Assembly: GCA_029245865.1 (NCBI GenBank) | Contig: JAQWOM010000043.1 | Location: 172,620 to 236,619, forward strand | Source: Planctomycetota bacterium | GTDB lineage: Bacteria; Planctomycetota; B15-G4 | DNA: 64,000 nt | Reading direction: 5' to 3' | Shown here: positions 19,889 through 30,794 of the stretch, piece after piece | How the letters are laid out: each line of letters starts with the position of its first letter | How positions within the stretch are numbered: position 1 is the first letter of the stretch | Program-made: the position numbers and the translations under genes | Notes under the pieces: model-generated | Told to the model about the DNA's origin: nothing | The model's input: only the letters and a program-made list of their open reading frames with translations | Databases searched by the model: none

Positions 19889-21040
19889 CTACCTCCGCTT
19901 TCGGCGGCGTCTCAGACGAGAGAGCCGCTGCTTTTGAATCCGCTGATCCTGCTCATCATCCACGGATGAATCCGGCCCCACATCCAGGCTCTTCTTGCCA
20001 GCAATTTGGCGCTCGATATCTTCGATCAGCTGCTGGGGATCCTGATAGCGGATCTCCCGGTCCTTGGCCATCATCTTCTCGATGAAGTAGTGCATGTGTG
20101 CACTGATGCGCCCTCCCTTTGTCGTTTCTGCCGACAAGCCTTCGAGCACAGCCTTCTGAACGAGTTCCTCGTCATCCCCGGAGAAAGGAAGTTCGCCAAG
20201 GACCAACTGATAGAGCGTCGCTCCCAGCGCATAGATGTCACTGCGCACGTCAAGATTCTCTTCACCGCGAGCAGACTCCGGGGAGAGAAAGGCCGCGGTG
20301 CCCCGCGTCGTCTCGGAAGAGGCCTCTTCATCGTGCCGCCGCTCGCCACCATCCACTGCCGCAAACCCGAGGTCGATGACCTTGACCTCGTGAGTCTCGG
20401 GAACCCAGAGAATGTTGCCCGGCTTGATGTCGCGATGAACGATGCCCTCGCTGCGCAAGAAATCGAGGGCCCGGGCCACTTGCAGCACGACAAGAAGCGC
20501 TGACTCCTCATCGAACACGCCGCCCTCGGAGATCGCCTCCTGCAGCGAGCGCCCGTCGACGCACTCCATGAAGGAGAGGTAGCGGCCTGCCAGTCGACCA
20601 GCCCGCAGCCCCTTCACCACATTGGGGTGCTCAAGGCGCTGCAGGAGCTTGGCCTCACCCATGAAAGCCTCGACCTCGGAGGGCTCGAGAGCGACATGGT
20701 CGTGCATCATTTTGACGGCCAGCCGCTCTCCGTCGGCCTCACGCCTTACGGCATAGACCGAGGCCACGCCGCCCTCGCCCAGCTTGGACTCATAAACATG
20801 GCCCGGTATGTCGGGCACTTCGTCCGCGTCCGTCCGAAACAATCGTTTCAATCGATCTTTGTCGAGAAGACCTGCCCGAACAGCCAGCCCGGCCAAAGAG
20901 ACAGGATTCCCTGCCTCCGCAGCCTTTCGGGCCTGGTCGAACAGCTTCTCGACCTGCCCCCGCTGGAGGATTCCTTTGACGGCCAGCCGGCCAAAAAAGC
21001 GGGCTTCTGTTGCGGGATCGATTGCCATGAGAGGGCCCAT
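19889..21040 (-). CDS. Serine/threonine protein kinase (Hanks type)
   Basis: LGEGGVASVYAVRREADGERLAVKMM, GIVHRDIKPGNILWV, VIDLGFAAVDGG, DVRSDIYALGATLYQLV. Confidence 0.95.
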   Translation of the reverse strand: MGPLMAIDPATEARFFGRLAVKGILQRGQVEKLFDQARKAAEAGNPVSLAGLAVRAGLLDKDRLKRLFRTDADEVPDIPGHVYESKLGEGGVASVYAVRREADGERLAVKMMHDHVALEPSEVEAFMGEAKLLQRLEHPNVVKGLRAGRLAGRYLSFMECVDGRSLQEAISEGGVFDEESALLVVLQVARALDFLRSEGIVHRDIKPGNILWVPETHEVKVIDLGFAAVDGGERRHDEEASSETTRGTAAFLSPESARGEENLDVRSDIYALGATLYQLVLGELPFSGDDEELVQKAVLEGLSAETTKGGRISAHMHYFIEKMMAKDREIRYQDPQQLIEDIERQIAGKKSLDVGPDSSVDDEQDQRIQKQRLSRLRRRRKRR

Positions 21041-21164
21041 CGTACCGGTGTTCTCGAAATCGATCGAGAAGGGAGCAGCGATCTCTCAAGCGAGACGTGG
21101 CCAACGTCCGATGAGCTAGGCATCCCACCACAAGGATCGACTGCCCACACCAGGGAGAATCAAG

Positions 21165-22541
21165 GTGCCCCGCTCTGACGACAACGTCGTACTCAAATAC
21201 TGTGAGCTCCTGGATGAGTTCATCCGCATCCGGACCACGACGGACGACGGCACTCGGCCATCGACCGGTGACGACGCGGTCACGAACCGCGCCGCCTACC
21301 ACCAGTTTGTCGTCAATCACTGCGTGGTGGACTACGAAGAGCAGGTACTCCCCCTCTTCCACCACCACAACAAGGTCTATCAAACAGAAGCTCTTGTCGA
21401 ACTGCTCTACCAGATCTGCATCGAGGTAAACCCTCACCTTGAAATCCACAGCGTGACGCTTCCTGGGGACAACTCGTCGGAAGGCCTCACAGATGGCTCC
21501 GGAATCGAGGTTGATGAGACTTGGAGTGAAGCAGATGACCTTGGTGCGCTCCAAGAGCGCGTACGCGACATCGAAAGCACACTCAGTCAGTGTGTCGTCG
21601 GGCAAGAGCCCGCGGTGCACGCCGTCTCGCATGCCGTCAAGAAGGCAGCTGTTGGCCTGAAGGATCCCCGCAAGCCCATCGGAGTTTTTCTCCTAGTCGG
21701 ACCGACCGGCACAGGAAAAACAGAACTCGCGAAATCTCTGACACGCCAGTTGTTTGGCAATCTCTCATCGCTTGTCCGCATTGACTGCAGTGAGTACGCC
21801 TTGCCACACGAGTACGCGAAACTGATTGGAGCTCCCCCCGGATACATCGGGCACAGTGAAGGCGGGCAGCTCACCGAAGCCGTCAAGAAAGCCAAGACCT
21901 GCGTTGTACTTTTCGACGAAATCGAGAAGGCGCACGAGAAAGTGCACAACCTCCTTCTCCAGCTGATGGACGAAGGAACACTGACCGACAGCAAGGGAGA
22001 AAAGGTCTCCTTCCAGCAGTCGATCGTCTTGATGACAAGCAACATCGGTGTCGACGAGGTGAACCGCATCACCGACCGCGTGGGTTTCGCCCGCAAGGAA
22101 ACAGGCGATATGCCTGCCAGCTCTGTCGCCTTCACGATGAACGAGGCCGTGAAGCGCGCCTTCCGTCCGGAATTCGTGAATCGAATTGACGAGGTCATCC
22201 AGTTCCGCCCTCTGACGGTGGAAGACTGCGAGAGCATCGCCAACCTTCAGCTTTCTGAAATGGCGAGCTACCTGGAGCGGACAGGCGTTTACCTGCGCTT
22301 TGCTCCGTCCCTGAGTCGCCACCTGGCCAAGATGGGCTGGTCTGCTGAATACGGAGCTCGCGAGCTGCGCCGGCATATCCGCGATGAGGTTGAAGACCCG
22401 CTCACCGAGCAGCTCATGGATGGCACTTTCAGCCCTGGTGACACCGTGAGCATCAGCGTCCGAGGCAAGAACAAGGTGGTCATGACACCCGTGCAAAAAC
22501 GCCGCAAACGCACAAGCCGAACCAAGAGCGAGGCTCTCTGA
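21165..22541 (+). CDS. Single-domain ClpA/B/C-like AAA+ ATPase with divergent N-terminus
   Basis: LLVGPTGTGKTELAKSLT, VVLFDEIEKAHEKVHNLLLQLMDEGTLTDSKGEKVSF, FRPEFVNRIDEVIQF; only one AAA+ domain; GTG start. Confidence 0.88.
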   Translation: MPRSDDNVVLKYCELLDEFIRIRTTTDDGTRPSTGDDAVTNRAAYHQFVVNHCVVDYEEQVLPLFHHHNKVYQTEALVELLYQICIEVNPHLEIHSVTLPGDNSSEGLTDGSGIEVDETWSEADDLGALQERVRDIESTLSQCVVGQEPAVHAVSHAVKKAAVGLKDPRKPIGVFLLVGPTGTGKTELAKSLTRQLFGNLSSLVRIDCSEYALPHEYAKLIGAPPGYIGHSEGGQLTEAVKKAKTCVVLFDEIEKAHEKVHNLLLQLMDEGTLTDSKGEKVSFQQSIVLMTSNIGVDEVNRITDRVGFARKETGDMPASSVAFTMNEAVKRAFRPEFVNRIDEVIQFRPLTVEDCESIANLQLSEMASYLERTGVYLRFAPSLSRHLAKMGWSAEYGARELRRHIRDEVEDPLTEQLMDGTFSPGDTVSISVRGKNKVVMTPVQKRRKRTSRTKSEAL

Positions 22542-25781: not shown

Positions 25782-26834
25782 ATGGTTTTTCACATCAACA
25801 AACTCGTGATGTTCCTCAGCATGACGCTCGCGCTGGCCTTCACCGCCATCGCACAAGACCCTCAAAGCGAGCCCGCCTCAGAGATCGCGCCACCTCTCTC
25901 GCCGGGAACCGTCGCCCGCGTCGGTGACATCCCTATCAGCGAGGCGGAATACTTTCGATACCTGGGTACGGTCTATGCCCGTGAACCGGAAGGTAAAATC
26001 GCAACGACCCAGGAACTCACCGAACGAGTTTTGATGGCGGCTGCAGCCGCAACTCAGGTCGAGGTCGATGAATCGGATGTCCAAGACCTCGCCGAACGCC
26101 TTGATGCTCGCGCGCGAACCGAATCCGGCGGTTCGATCGGACTGGTTGAAAGCCTTGGTGCTGAAGAGAGCGAACTCCGCCACTCCCTCGGGTTGCTCGC
26201 ACTCCAAGAGAAGATCATTGCTGTAGAAACAGGTGTCAGCCACCCGTCAGACCAGCAGTTGCGCGCATGGATGGAGAACGCCCTCTCGGGTTTTGAATTG
26301 CAGCCAGCCCCTCTCCACGATGCCGTTGCCACCCGCTGGCATGACGGCGAGATCACCAGAATTCAATTGGGCCGACGTCTGTATGCACTGCTGACGCCCG
26401 AGGACCGAGCTGGAGTACTCACCGAACTCATCGGCATACTCCTCATTCGCGCTGCAACTGAGCGAGCGGGGCTTGAGTTAACAGCAGAGGCTCTTGCCGA
26501 AGAGATTGCTCGGAGAGACGCGCTCGTGCGCAACCGAGATGAGACGTCGGGCATCTCCTATGCGGACATGGTAAAGCAAATGCAAAACCTCACGGTCGAA
26601 GAGCTCATCTCAACGCCAAGCTTTGGAGCCCAGGTACGTTTACGGCTCCTCGTCGAACAGCGCTGGGACGAGACTCGGCTACGCAGTTACTTCGAGGACG
26701 AGCGCGCCAGCTTCGAGCAAAGGTTCGGCCCGGACATCACCTTCGAAGCAGCTCAGTCTGCGCTGTGGCGGGAAGTCCGACAACTCAGCTATCGACAACT
26801 GTTCTCGGAATGTAGAATCGTCCGCAGCTTTTGA
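25782..26834 (+). CDS. Secreted SurA-N/peptidyl-prolyl-isomerase-like hypothetical protein
   Basis: Signal peptide, then VARVGDIPISEAEYFRYL resembling the SurA/PrsA N-domain entry; helical remainder. Confidence 0.5.
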   Translation: MVFHINKLVMFLSMTLALAFTAIAQDPQSEPASEIAPPLSPGTVARVGDIPISEAEYFRYLGTVYAREPEGKIATTQELTERVLMAAAAATQVEVDESDVQDLAERLDARARTESGGSIGLVESLGAEESELRHSLGLLALQEKIIAVETGVSHPSDQQLRAWMENALSGFELQPAPLHDAVATRWHDGEITRIQLGRRLYALLTPEDRAGVLTELIGILLIRAATERAGLELTAEALAEEIARRDALVRNRDETSGISYADMVKQMQNLTVEELISTPSFGAQVRLRLLVEQRWDETRLRSYFEDERASFEQRFGPDITFEAAQSALWREVRQLSYRQLFSECRIVRSF

Positions 26835-26884: not shown

Positions 26885-27211
26885 ATGTTTATTGGAAAAG
26901 TCGTCGGCACCGTGGTCTCGACCATCAAGGACGAAAAGGTCGCGAATCTCAAGCTCCAGATCGTCCAAGAACTCGACGAAAATGCAGCGCCACGAGACAA
27001 GTACGTGGTGGCCGCTGACACCATTGGCGCAGGTCAAGGCGATCTGGTTTTGTTCAGCCAGGGCAGTTCGGCTCGTCAGACCACATTGACTGATGGACGG
27101 CCCATTGACGCGGCCATCTTTGCAGTTATTGACAGCTGGGACGTGCATGGCGACCTCGTGTATCAGAAGGAAGGCCTCGAAACGACGTCCTACGACCCGG
27201 CCGAGAGCTAG
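26885..27211 (+). CDS. EutN/CcmL (BMC-P) vertex shell protein 1
   Basis: MFIGKVVGTVVSTIKDEKVANLKLQIVQELDE; VVAADTIGAGQGDLVLFSQGSSARQTTLTDGRPIDAAIFAVID. Confidence 0.93.
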   Translation: MFIGKVVGTVVSTIKDEKVANLKLQIVQELDENAAPRDKYVVAADTIGAGQGDLVLFSQGSSARQTTLTDGRPIDAAIFAVIDSWDVHGDLVYQKEGLETTSYDPAES

Positions 27212-27216
27212 CCAAA

Positions 27217-27507
27217 GTGCACCTTGCTCGCGTCATTGGCCGCGTCGTCGCAACTCGCCGAATCACCGGGCTCGCGACTGAGAAGCTGCTGCTTGTTCGC
27301 CCTCTCGACGAACACGGCGAGTCCGCAGGGAATACGTTGGTCGCGTGCGACATCGCCAACTCCGGGCTGGGAGACCTGGTCCACATCTGCGATGGCCGCG
27401 AGTCCACATTAGCCCTTGCTGAAACCTACGTCCCCGTAGACGCAACCATTGTGGGACACGTAGAACAGTTTGAAGTCCAAGAAGACGTCGGCGGCAGCGC
27501 GCAATGA
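27217..27507 (+). CDS. EutN/CcmL (BMC-P) vertex shell protein 2
   Basis: MHLARVIGRVVATRRITGLATEKLLLVRPLDE; VACDIANSGLGDLVHICDGRESTLAL; PVDATIVGHVE; GTG start. Confidence 0.9.
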   Translation: MHLARVIGRVVATRRITGLATEKLLLVRPLDEHGESAGNTLVACDIANSGLGDLVHICDGRESTLALAETYVPVDATIVGHVEQFEVQEDVGGSAQ

Positions 27508-28253
27508 CGGCACTCCTTCAAGTCGATGGACTGACCTATCACTACGGAACCCGCGTCGCTGTGGACGGGGTTTCTTTCGAAGTGCAGAGCGGCGAGATTC
27601 TGGCTTTACTGGGACCCAACGGAGCCGGCAAGACCACCGCCATCAGTTGCCTGTGCGGGCTGCTGGCTCCTCGCGACGGCGTGATGACATTCGAAGGCGA
27701 GCGCTTCACCCCCCTCGAGACCCCTTCACAGCGAGGCCGACTCGGCGTGGTCCCGCAGGAGCTCGCGCTGTACGAAGCTCTGACAGCGGCCGAGAATCTA
27801 CTCTTCTTTGCACAGCTTCACGGCGTCTCCGACCCCGAATCTGCTGTGGCTCGCGGCCTGAAACTGGCCGCCCTCGAAGGACGCGCAGGTGATCGGGTCA
27901 AGACATTTTCCGGCGGCATGAAGCGCCGCCTCAATCTGGCCGTCGGCACCTTGACCGAGCCCAGCCTCACCTTGCTCGACGAGCCCATGGTGGGAGTCGA
28001 CCCACAGTCTCGGAATCACATCTTCGACAGCATTGAGAATCTCCGCGATCAAGGCCGCGGCATTCTCTACACCTCGCATTCCATGGATGACGTAGAACGG
28101 CTCTGCGATCGCGTCGCCATCATGGACCACGGCAAGTTGATGGCCATCGGGACTCCGGCGCAACTGGCAACCGAGGCCGGCATTCCGGAAGCCGACCTTG
28201 AACGGACCTTCCTCGAGTTAACCGGCCGTTCGCTACGAGACGAGAGCAGCTGA
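27504..28253 (+). CDS. ABC-2 type exporter ATP-binding protein
   Basis: ALLGPNGAGKTTAISCLCG, FSGGMKRRLNLAVG, LTLLDEPMVGVDPQSR; ATGA overlap with EutN-2. Confidence 0.95.
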   Translation: MTALLQVDGLTYHYGTRVAVDGVSFEVQSGEILALLGPNGAGKTTAISCLCGLLAPRDGVMTFEGERFTPLETPSQRGRLGVVPQELALYEALTAAENLLFFAQLHGVSDPESAVARGLKLAALEGRAGDRVKTFSGGMKRRLNLAVGTLTEPSLTLLDEPMVGVDPQSRNHIFDSIENLRDQGRGILYTSHSMDDVERLCDRVAIMDHGKLMAIGTPAQLATEAGIPEADLERTFLELTGRSLRDESS

Positions 28254-28255
28254 CG

Positions 28256-29575
28256 ATGATCCGCAACACCATGATCATGGTCATCAAAGACTTGCGGCTA
28301 TTCCTGCGCGATAAGGTCGCCTTGATGCTGGCGGTCTTGCTGCCCATCGTTCTGGTCACCGTCTTCTGCTCGATCATGACAGGTATGGGCGGAGGCAACG
28401 GAGGCATGCCCTCGATTGAGGTCGCCCTGCTCGACCAGGATCAGTCGCCTGCCTCGAATGCTTTCGTAGCGGCCTTCGGTGACATGCAGGGCATTTCTCT
28501 CGTGCTTGCCGAGCCTGCATCCACTCGCGACGACCTTGTGCGGCTCGTGCACGATGGGCAACGGCCCTTCGCCGTCCTGCTACCCGAGGGGTTCGCGGCG
28601 GGAGCCGAGCTTGAGTTGATCCGCGATCCGGGTCGATCGATGAGCCTGCAAATTCTCAGTATCGGACTCGTGCGCGCGCTCTTTGAAACCCGCGGTGAGG
28701 AACTTCTCTGGGAGATCCAGTCCCGCTCACTCGAAGCCGCAGGCATTCCCGCGGAATGGACCACTCGCATCGAGGCCTTCACCACACCCTTCCGCCAGGC
28801 CATGAAGAGCCTGTTTACAGACGCCGCAGAAGAAGGGCATGTCAGTCCGGACGCAGAAGCCGACGGTGAGGACTTTGACTTCCAGCAATTCGCGCTGCAG
28901 GTCCTGCCCATTCAGACGCAGGACGTCCTGCCCAGCGGCCGGCAGGAGCAGATCACCTACATGGTTTCCCACTCCGTCTCGGGCATGACGGTGATGATGA
29001 TCATGTTCAGCTTGGTCGGCTTCGCTCGCACACTCCTCGAAGAGCGCAAAGATGGGACGATGCGGCGACTGCTCTGTGCACCAATCAACCCGTTGACGGT
29101 TCTGATGAGCAAATTCCTGGGCGCATTCATGGTCGGAATGTGTCTTGTCTTCATTCTCTTCGCCTACGCGGCCCTCGTCTTTGACTTCAGCTTCCTGCCA
29201 CACTGGGACACCGTGCTGGTCATCTCACTGGCAACCGTGGCCAGTTCGACAGCTTTTGCACTGCTCATTGCTGTGGTGTCCACCTCTGACAAGCAAGCGG
29301 ACGGGCTCTCAACCATCTTGATTCTGGTCATGTCGGCACTTGGCGGTGCGTGGATGCCGTTGATGTTCATGCCAGAGGCCGTGCGAACCGTTGGCCAGTT
29401 CACTCTGACTTACTGGTCCATCGAGGCCTATCAGAGCGTCTTCTGGAGCGGGCTCCACTGGACCAACCCGACCATCCTCAAGGACCTCGGTGTCTTACTC
29501 GGTCTCGCCCTCGTGCTCGTGTTTGTGGCCGCCCGTGTATTCCAACGCCGTCGCCTGAGTGGGTTCGCATCATGA
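28256..29575 (+). CDS. ABC-2 type exporter permease (with large extracytoplasmic domain)
   Basis: N-term TM, about 200-aa loop, then ABC-2 TM bundle (ERKDGTMRRLLCAPINPLTVLMSKFLGAFMVGM). Confidence 0.92.
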   Translation: MIRNTMIMVIKDLRLFLRDKVALMLAVLLPIVLVTVFCSIMTGMGGGNGGMPSIEVALLDQDQSPASNAFVAAFGDMQGISLVLAEPASTRDDLVRLVHDGQRPFAVLLPEGFAAGAELELIRDPGRSMSLQILSIGLVRALFETRGEELLWEIQSRSLEAAGIPAEWTTRIEAFTTPFRQAMKSLFTDAAEEGHVSPDAEADGEDFDFQQFALQVLPIQTQDVLPSGRQEQITYMVSHSVSGMTVMMIMFSLVGFARTLLEERKDGTMRRLLCAPINPLTVLMSKFLGAFMVGMCLVFILFAYAALVFDFSFLPHWDTVLVISLATVASSTAFALLIAVVSTSDKQADGLSTILILVMSALGGAWMPLMFMPEAVRTVGQFTLTYWSIEAYQSVFWSGLHWTNPTILKDLGVLLGLALVLVFVAARVFQRRRLSGFAS

Positions 29576-29877
29576 AGATCGGCAAGGTCATTGGCACCGT
29601 GGTCACGCCCGTCCAGCACCCGTCCTACGACGGACAACGCCTGCTTGCGGTGCGCCCGGTCGCACCGGACCTCAGCCCCACCCAGGACCGCATGTTCACA
29701 GCCGTCGATCGCTGCCAGGCCGGCGTCGGTGACATCGTGCTCCTGATGGCCGAAGGAAGCTCCGTGCGCGAGATCGTGGGCGACTCGGAAGCGCCCATAA
29801 GGACTGCTGTCGTGGGCGTCATTGACGAGATCAGTCTTCATGGACAGATCGTCTACCCGGCGCTCAACGGCTTCTGA
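29572..29877 (+). CDS. EutN/CcmL (BMC-P) vertex shell protein 3
   Basis: MKIGKVIGTVVTPVQHPSYDGQRLLAVRPV; FTAVDRCQAGVGDIVLLMAEGSSVREI; PIRTAVVGVIDEI; ATGA overlap with the ABC permease. Confidence 0.93.
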   Translation: MKIGKVIGTVVTPVQHPSYDGQRLLAVRPVAPDLSPTQDRMFTAVDRCQAGVGDIVLLMAEGSSVREIVGDSEAPIRTAVVGVIDEISLHGQIVYPALNGF

Positions 29878-29933: not shown

Positions 29934-30794
29934 ATGGACCAGCCTTCTCCCGGCATCGACGACCTTCAAGCCTGCTTCCCGCCTGCTGCGGTGGATCCCT
30001 CTCTGGAGGGCAAACCCATCGGCACGACCCCCTGGGCAGCCCCGGAAGCGGGCCCCGTGCGGCACGACACTCTGGTGCAGGCAGCGCCGGACGACAAGGC
30101 GGCACTCGCGCAACAGATCTGCGACGTGATGCGGATGCTCTACAAGGCCGAGATGGTCGTCGCCAATGACGGCAATGTCAGTGCGCGGCTGCCCAACGGC
30201 AACATCATGATCACCGCATCTGGAGTCTTGAAGGGCTTCATGACACCGGATCAGGTCATCGAATGCGACTCGCAAGGCAACGCGCTTGACGGGCGCACTG
30301 TCACGACAGAGATCAAGATGCACGTTGCTGCCTACCAGGAGCGCCCCGACATACGCGCCGTGGTTCATGCGCACCCCATCTATGCCACGGCCTTTTCGCT
30401 GGCGGGCGTTTCTCTGGCCGAATGCACCATCCCCGAGATCATCGTGACCATGGGATCTATTCCCACGGCTCCGTATGCGACCCCCTCCACATACGATCTG
30501 CCCGACGAACTCCGGCCGTTCCTTTCAAAAGGAGACGCCGTGATCATGGAGCGGCACGGCGTGGTGTGCATTGGCAGCGATTTGATCGACGCTTACAAGA
30601 AGATGGAAATGGTGGAGCACACCGCCAAGATCACGCACGTTGCACGAACTCTGGGCACCGTGAAGCCCATTGCTCCTCCGGGCGTGAAGGCCCTTCTCGA
30701 AACCCGCAAGTCGCTCGGCATTCAGACGAAGAACAACCTCTGCCACGGCTGCGGCGCTCGCGAGGTCTGCGCGGCCCCGCTGTATCCCGAATGA
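29934..30794 (+). CDS. Class II aldolase (fuculose-phosphate aldolase-like) with N-terminal extension and Cys-rich C-terminal tail
   Basis: VVANDGNVSARLPNGNIMITASGVLKGFM, AVVHAHPIYATAFSLAG, VIMERHGVVCIGSDLIDAYKKMEMVEHTAKI; tail NNLCHGCGAREVCAAPLYPE. Confidence 0.92.
   Translation: MDQPSPGIDDLQACFPPAAVDPSLEGKPIGTTPWAAPEAGPVRHDTLVQAAPDDKAALAQQICDVMRMLYKAEMVVANDGNVSARLPNGNIMITASGVLKGFMTPDQVIECDSQGNALDGRTVTTEIKMHVAAYQERPDIRAVVHAHPIYATAFSLAGVSLAECTIPEIIVTMGSIPTAPYATPSTYDLPDELRPFLSKGDAVIMERHGVVCIGSDLIDAYKKMEMVEHTAKITHVARTLGTVKPIAPPGVKALLETRKSLGIQTKNNLCHGCGAREVCAAPLYPE

What the first reader, a model, noticed from the sequence alone, without database searches (positions are those of the whole stretch)
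26885..29877. Three EutN/CcmL shell pentamer genes translationally interleaved with an ABC-2 exporter
Seen: order EutN1, EutN2, ABC ATPase, ABC permease, EutN3, with ATGA overlaps at 27504-27507 (EutN2/ATPase) and 29572-29575 (permease/EutN3), so the exporter is genuinely within the shell-protein operon. Known: planctomycete (PVM-type) microcompartment loci carry three BMC-P genes, but alongside BMC-H shell genes, PduL, an acylating aldehyde dehydrogenase and an acetate kinase, none of which I see here. Inference: either a split BMC locus or a BMC-P-derived system (for example membrane-associated pentamers) working with an exporter.
Basis: partly seen in the sequence, partly recalled or inferred. 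Interest (0 to 1): 0.7.

Follow-up and report, generated by a model that had tools for sequence, protein, structure and literature searches.

The report
Split microcompartment locus with inserted ABC exporter
Three shell-corner genes of a bacterial protein organelle sit with a sugar-phosphate aldolase apart from the rest of the organelle's genes, an arrangement common in Planctomycetota; the transporter pair wedged among them is an addition found in this position in this genome only, so the finding is mostly ordinary.

Summary
EutN1, EutN2, an ABC ATPase, an ABC-2 permease and EutN3 lie in that order with 4-bp ATGA overlaps at both EutN/ABC junctions. A class II aldolase follows directly (29934-30794).

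The "split locus" reading is right; the "BMC-P-derived membrane system" reading is not supported. The same genome carries the main shell locus on contig C38: acylating aldehyde dehydrogenase, BMC-H, CcmP-like BMC-T, two more BMC-P, PduT-like BMC-T. It also has a lone BMC-T on C15.

The window segment is a conserved satellite module, (SurA-like)-P1-P2-P3-aldolase. P1, P2 and P3 are each monophyletic across phyla. In 36 of 37 independent loci P2 and P3 are adjacent; only the window has genes between them. One family member (G003) has an orthologous ABC pair just upstream of P1; another (G005) has a different ABC-2 set beside P1, divergent. In other relatives the homologous ABC pairs have unrelated neighbours.

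PduL, Pta, acetate kinase, fucose isomerase and rhamnose isomerase were not found (genome about 91% complete), so this is not a PVM locus. It fits the BMC-P-triplet (FRAG/HO/ACI-like) metabolosomes.

The parts
26885..27211 (+). EutN1: BMC-P vertex protein, clade P1
   Evidence: PF03319 8e-29; nearest solved structure is 5v74 (microcompartment shell), 5e-23; P1 clade monophyletic, support 73
27217..27507 (+). EutN2: BMC-P vertex protein, clade P2 (GTG start)
   Evidence: PF03319 1e-22; P2 clade monophyletic, support 99
27504..28253 (+). ABC-2 type exporter ATPase (DrrA-like), inserted
   Evidence: PF00005 2e-30; TIGR01188 222 bits, below cut-off; overlaps EutN2 by 4 bp; not at this place in 36 other loci
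28256..29575 (+). ABC-2 permease, inserted; one N-terminal TM-like segment, a large region without TM-like segments, then C-terminal TM-like segments
   Evidence: PF12698 1e-32; hydropathy; ortholog 56-57% identical in G003
29572..29877 (+). EutN3: BMC-P vertex protein, clade P3
   Evidence: PF03319 2e-20; P3 clade monophyletic, support 82; overlaps the permease by 4 bp
29934..30794 (+). Class II (FucA-type) aldolase, likely signature enzyme; the only PF00596 protein found in the genome
   Evidence: PF00596 6e-46; single copy; nearest solved structures are class II/fuculose-phosphate aldolases; Glu126, His145, His147 and His208 invariant
25782..26834 (+). SurA-like protein with a signal-peptide-like N-terminus, upstream of EutN1; neighbour conserved in many planctomycete loci, link to the BMC unknown
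   Evidence: PF13624 4e-6, at the cut-off; recognised beside the module in roughly half of the 37 loci

Best explanation
The segment is a satellite locus of a fragmented BMC-P-triplet metabolosome in a planctomycete. Shown: three vertex proteins (P1, P2, P3) and a class II aldolase form a conserved gene module, and the facet proteins, further vertex proteins and a CoA-acylating aldehyde dehydrogenase lie at a second locus of the same genome. Inferred: the aldolase cleaves a 1-phosphorylated keto-sugar to DHAP plus a short aldehyde, and the dehydrogenase converts the aldehyde to acyl-CoA in or at the shell. The ABC-2 exporter pair is an accessory insertion into this operon, probably co-expressed with it through the gene overlaps. 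It is most likely not a structural or mechanistic part of the organelle.
For: The genome has BMC-H, two CcmP-like BMC-T, a PduT-like BMC-T and two more BMC-P elsewhere. All five family relatives have the same two loci, far apart in G002: on contigs of 1.04 and 1.44 Mb, with the P4/P5 genes more than 540 kb from either end of their contig. P2-P3 adjacency holds in 36 of 37 loci; only the window differs. In three loci of other lineages (L120, L134, L167) the same genes lie in one locus, in the order P1-ALDH-PduT-P2-P3-aldolase. P1, P2 and P3 clades span phyla, and the window's copies show no long branches. The only close ABC ortholog near the module (G003) sits at a different position, upstream of P1. 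Other homologous ABC pairs have unrelated neighbours.
Against: ABC-2 exporters lie next to this satellite in three of six family genomes: G000, G003 and, non-orthologous and divergent, G005. That could mean a functional tie. Both EutN/ABC junctions are overlapping, so co-expression is likely. No expression or biochemical data exist. That the aldolase is cargo is not shown: it lacks the C-terminal encapsulation-like helix seen in its relatives from other phyla.
Confidence: 0.8

Rival explanations
1. The ABC exporter is a working partner of the metabolosome. It is co-translated with the vertex proteins and exports a product or toxic by-product of the encapsulated pathway, or holds shells near the membrane.
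For: 4-bp overlaps at both junctions. An orthologous pair lies directly upstream of P1 in G003, and a different ABC-2 set lies beside P1 in G005. G000 and G003 ABC proteins fall together in the ABC tree although the two genomes are not nearest neighbours in the shell/enzyme tree.
Against: Absent at this place in 36 of 37 loci. Position differs even between G000 and G003. Homologous pairs elsewhere in the order have unrelated neighbours (transaldolase and TMEM164, AlaX-like and OmpA, CBS-domain protein). EutN2 and EutN3 of the window are not unusually divergent. Four-base overlaps are common in bacterial operons (general knowledge).
Confidence: 0.12
2. BMC-P proteins here have been redeployed as a shell-independent, membrane-associated pentamer system with the ABC exporter.
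For: No hexamer gene in the window; BMC-P genes interleaved with membrane-protein genes.
Against: Hexamer and trimer genes exist on C38 and C15. The satellite with the aldolase is conserved without the ABC. No hydrophobic segment in EutN1-3: highest 19-residue Kyte-Doolittle mean is 1.13.
Confidence: 0.03
3. It is a standard PVM (fucose/rhamnose) microcompartment that happens to be split.
For: Class II aldolase, three BMC-P genes, acylating ALDH, planctomycete host.
Against: No PduL, acetate kinase, fucose isomerase or rhamnose isomerase in the assembly. PduL is also absent from all five family relatives. The ancillary genes given for PVM in PMC4207490 (DeoR regulator, acetate kinase) are not at either locus as far as read.
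Confidence: 0.05

Closest known systems
FRAG-type BMCs (Sutter et al. 2021, PMC8217296)
   Same: BMC-P triplet; shell genes scattered over several genomic places; reported in Planctomycetes; an ALDH without an obvious signature enzyme beside it
   Different: Here the triplet is joined to a class II aldolase and, in this genome only, to an ABC-2 exporter. The FRAG subtype could not be assigned because supplementary data were not available.
ACI BMCs of Acidobacteria (PMC8217296)
   Same: PF00596 aldolase with a BMC-P triplet; ALDH at a different locus from the aldolase
   Different: Host phylum; [quoted passage not shown] the ACI aldolase has a C-terminal encapsulation peptide, not recognised here
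HO BMC of Haliangium ochraceum and its satellite (PMC8217296)
   Same: BMC-P triplet; type I satellite with two BMC-P and an aldolase. Nearest solved structures of EutN1 and of the C38 CcmP-like protein are from entry 5v74, one chain of which is labelled HO-5816.
   Different: Three BMC-P in the satellite here, plus two more (P4, P5) at the main locus; ABC insertion
PVM (planctomycete/verrucomicrobial) BMC
   Same: Class II aldolase, acylating ALDH, several BMC-P
   Different: No PduL, AckA, FucI or RhaA found; two-locus layout
DrrAB-like ABC-2 exporters
   Same: Separate ATPase and ABC2_membrane_3 permease genes
   Different: Below curated equivalog cut-offs; substrate unknown

Membership tests
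BMC satellite locus | Shell genes of only one kind (PF03319 or PF00936) at the locus | tested here: met
   Three PF03319 and no PF00936 match on contig C43
BMC satellite locus | Another locus in the genome with both BMC-H and BMC-P | tested here: met
   C38:38804-41160
BMC satellite locus | Shell genes contiguous | tested here: not met
   The ABC pair separates EutN2 and EutN3 in this genome; contiguous in the relatives compared. The strict Axen 2014 (PMC4207490) satellite definition is therefore not met and 'satellite-like' applies; Sutter 2021 does not state this criterion in the text read.
FRAG-type BMC | BMC-P triplet and shell genes in several genomic places | tested here: met
   Three places: C43, C38, C15; triplet clades
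FRAG-type BMC | Shell-protein clade colours assigning a FRAG subtype | not testable with these tools
PVM BMC | Class II aldolase (PF00596) signature enzyme | tested here: met
   29934-30794
PVM BMC | PduL phosphotransacylase | tested here: not met
   0 matches in the own genome and in five family relatives
PVM BMC | Acetate kinase | tested here: not met
   0 matches
PVM BMC | Fucose or rhamnose isomerase in the genome | tested here: not met
   0 matches; genome about 91% complete
ACI BMC | C-terminal encapsulation peptide on the aldolase | tested here: not met
   Tail ends LCHGCGAREVCAAPLYPE with no helix-like extension (by eye)
ABC-2 exporter | ABC_tran ATPase plus ABC2 membrane permease, motifs intact | tested here: met
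   PF00005 and PF12698; Walker A GPNGAGKTT, signature SGGMKRR and Walker B LTLLDEP read from the sequence

The most novel reading that the evidence does not exclude
The exporter is functionally coupled to the microcompartment in this planctomycete family: made in step with vertex proteins P2 and P3, it removes a product or toxic aldehyde derivative of the encapsulated aldolase pathway or positions shells at the membrane. The recurrent placement of ABC-2 exporters beside this satellite in three of six family genomes would reflect selection.
Probability: 0.12. Interest if true: 0.6.

Novelty: new member of a known kind. Interest (0 to 1): 0.3.

Why it matters
It settles that window-only absence of hexamer genes is not evidence for a shell-free pentamer system. 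It also documents a conserved two-locus, BMC-P-rich metabolosome without a recognised phosphotransacylase in a planctomycete family. The functions of the FRAG, HO and ACI types are unknown (PMC8217296). The gene content here (one class II aldolase, an acylating ALDH, MtnA present, no PF00596 MtnB) gives a testable substrate guess: 5-deoxyribulose-1-phosphate or 5-methylthioribulose-1-phosphate.

Tried and rejected
PVM membership: rejected on missing PduL, AckA, FucI and RhaA. Classical Pta: also not found. Assembly chimera as cause of the interleaving: judged unlikely, because both junctions are exact 4-bp gene overlaps inside a 236-kb contig and an orthologous ABC pair sits in the same neighbourhood in G003. 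Foreign origin by composition: GC (59-64%) and GC3 of the ABC genes match their neighbours. ABC pair of G004 as a possible third nearby copy: its 4.4-kb contig ends just after the permease, and the SurA-EutN contig ends inside SurA; no end overlap was found, so undecided. Profile search of the permease against solved structures gave only weak ABCG hits, no substrate clue. Promoter/terminator scan: nothing above chance.

Full report
OBSERVATION. Spacing is tight throughout: EutN1/EutN2 5 bp, EutN2/ATPase 4-bp overlap, ATPase/permease 2 bp, permease/EutN3 4-bp overlap, EutN3/aldolase 56 bp. The gene after EutN3, not mentioned in the finding, is a class II aldolase (PF00596, 6e-46). Its catalytic Glu and metal-binding His residues (Glu126, His145, His147, His208) are invariant in the alignment (residue roles from knowledge of FucA), and its nearest solved structures are class II and fuculose-phosphate aldolases. 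It is the only PF00596 protein found in the genome.

THE REST OF THE ORGANELLE. The genome (3.33 Mb, 57 contigs, 90.7% complete) is not free of hexamers. Contig C38 carries an acylating aldehyde dehydrogenase (TIGR02518, 546 bits, below its 620 cut-off), BMC-H, a CcmP-like BMC-T, two further BMC-P (P4, P5), a PduT-like BMC-T, two small proteins (one with an ACT domain) and DUF711. A second CcmP-like BMC-T stands alone on C15. No PduL, Pta, acetate kinase, fucose isomerase C-domain or RhaA was found; absence is qualified by about 9% missing genome.

CONSERVATION. All five family relatives have five EutN genes in the same two loci. The split is real and not an assembly gap: in G002 the loci lie on contigs of 1.04 and 1.44 Mb, with the P4/P5 genes more than 540 kb from either end of their contig. 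Four genomes of a second family of the order (G006, G008, G010, G012) have P1-P2 and P3-aldolase on separate contigs; these contigs are short, so how far apart the halves lie is not known. Across 37 independent loci that hold P1, P2, P3 and the aldolase, P2 and P3 lie less than 200 bp apart in 36; the exception is the window, with 2068 bp. In L120, L134 and L167, from other lineages, the order is CcmP or BMC-H, P1, ALDH, PduT-like, P2, P3, aldolase in one locus, so the planctomycete layout looks like a fission of such a locus; the direction of that change is inferred. A tree of 46 BMC-P proteins gives monophyletic P1 (73), P2 (99), P3 (82) and P4+P5 (100), with window proteins in their expected places on ordinary branches.

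THE EXPORTER. The ABC pair is a generic DrrA-like ATPase with an ABC2_membrane_3 permease, below all equivalog cut-offs. Its nearest relative (ATPase 63%, permease 56-57%) lies directly upstream of P1 in G003, in the place where SurA lies in G001, G002 and G004. G004 has a more distant pair on a short contig. G005 has a different ABC-2 set divergent from P1. Elsewhere in the order the pair has unrelated neighbours. In the shell/enzyme tree G000 pairs with G002 (99) and G003 with G005 (90), while the ABC tree places G000 with G003. Either one old association with later losses and moves, or two insertions, would fit. In neither case is P2-ABC-P3 a conserved organelle arrangement.

LIKELY FUNCTION. 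Shown: gene content and conservation. Inferred: a metabolosome in which the aldolase yields DHAP and an aldehyde that the ALDH turns into acyl-CoA. With no PTAC or acetate kinase found, acyl-CoA may be used directly. The substrate is unknown. One guess: MtnA is present (TIGR00512, 422 bits against a cut-off of 279) while MtnB, a PF00596 enzyme, is not. The sole class II aldolase could therefore act as the DHAP-shunt aldolase on MtnA's product, giving acetaldehyde or methylthioacetaldehyde (pathway described in PMC10986504). I give this about 20%; the MtnP/MtnN and MtnK steps were not tested, and MtnA is common.

COMPARISON. Sutter et al. 2021 (PMC8217296) describe BMC-P triplets in HO, ACI and FRAG types, scattered FRAG loci in Planctomycetes, ACI loci with a PF00596 aldolase and a remote ALDH, and an HO satellite with two BMC-P plus aldolase. 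The present case fits that group; the exact subtype could not be tested. The strict 2014 satellite definition (PMC4207490) requires contiguous shell genes, so 'satellite-like' is the accurate label for this genome.

VERDICT. A real, correctly described gene order; a known kind of split microcompartment locus; an exporter pair that is most likely a lineage-specific insertion. The recurrence of ABC-2 exporters beside the module in three of six family genomes keeps a functional link possible but unproven.

Noticed in passing
L011 14999-16732 (contig C38) and relatives L059-L063: The acylating ALDH of this family has a long low-complexity Pro/Ala-rich C-terminal tail with two short conserved motifs (GNPTHPASPF and PPYEGGxIP followed by basic/aromatic residues), possibly a non-helical targeting signal (by eye).
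   Followed up: partly
window 29934-30794 versus L118, L120, L134, L167, L126, L130, L115, L119: The class II aldolase keeps a C-terminal Cys-rich motif (LCxGCGAREVC) but lacks the C-terminal amphipathic-helix-like tail seen in its homologs from other phyla; it has instead a conserved N-terminal extension of about 50 residues within the family.
   Followed up: partly
window 25782-26834: A SurA-like protein with a signal-peptide-like N-terminus is recognised beside the BMC-P triplet in roughly half of the 37 loci, although the shell is cytosolic.
   Followed up: partly
window 19889-22541: A protein kinase gene (minus strand) and a ClpB-D2-like AAA ATPase gene (plus strand) also recur upstream of this satellite in distant planctomycetes.
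   Followed up: no
L012 277-1641 and the ACT-domain gene before it (L011 19613 to L012): DUF711 and an ACT-domain protein are attached to the main shell locus in all family members and some other planctomycetes; role unknown.
   Followed up: no
L013 9804-10457 (contig C15): A second CcmP-like tandem BMC-T gene stands alone among unrelated genes.
   Followed up: no
L048-L055 (G006, G008, G010, G012): In a second family of the order the triplet appears split again, P1-P2 on one contig and P3-aldolase on another.
   Followed up: no
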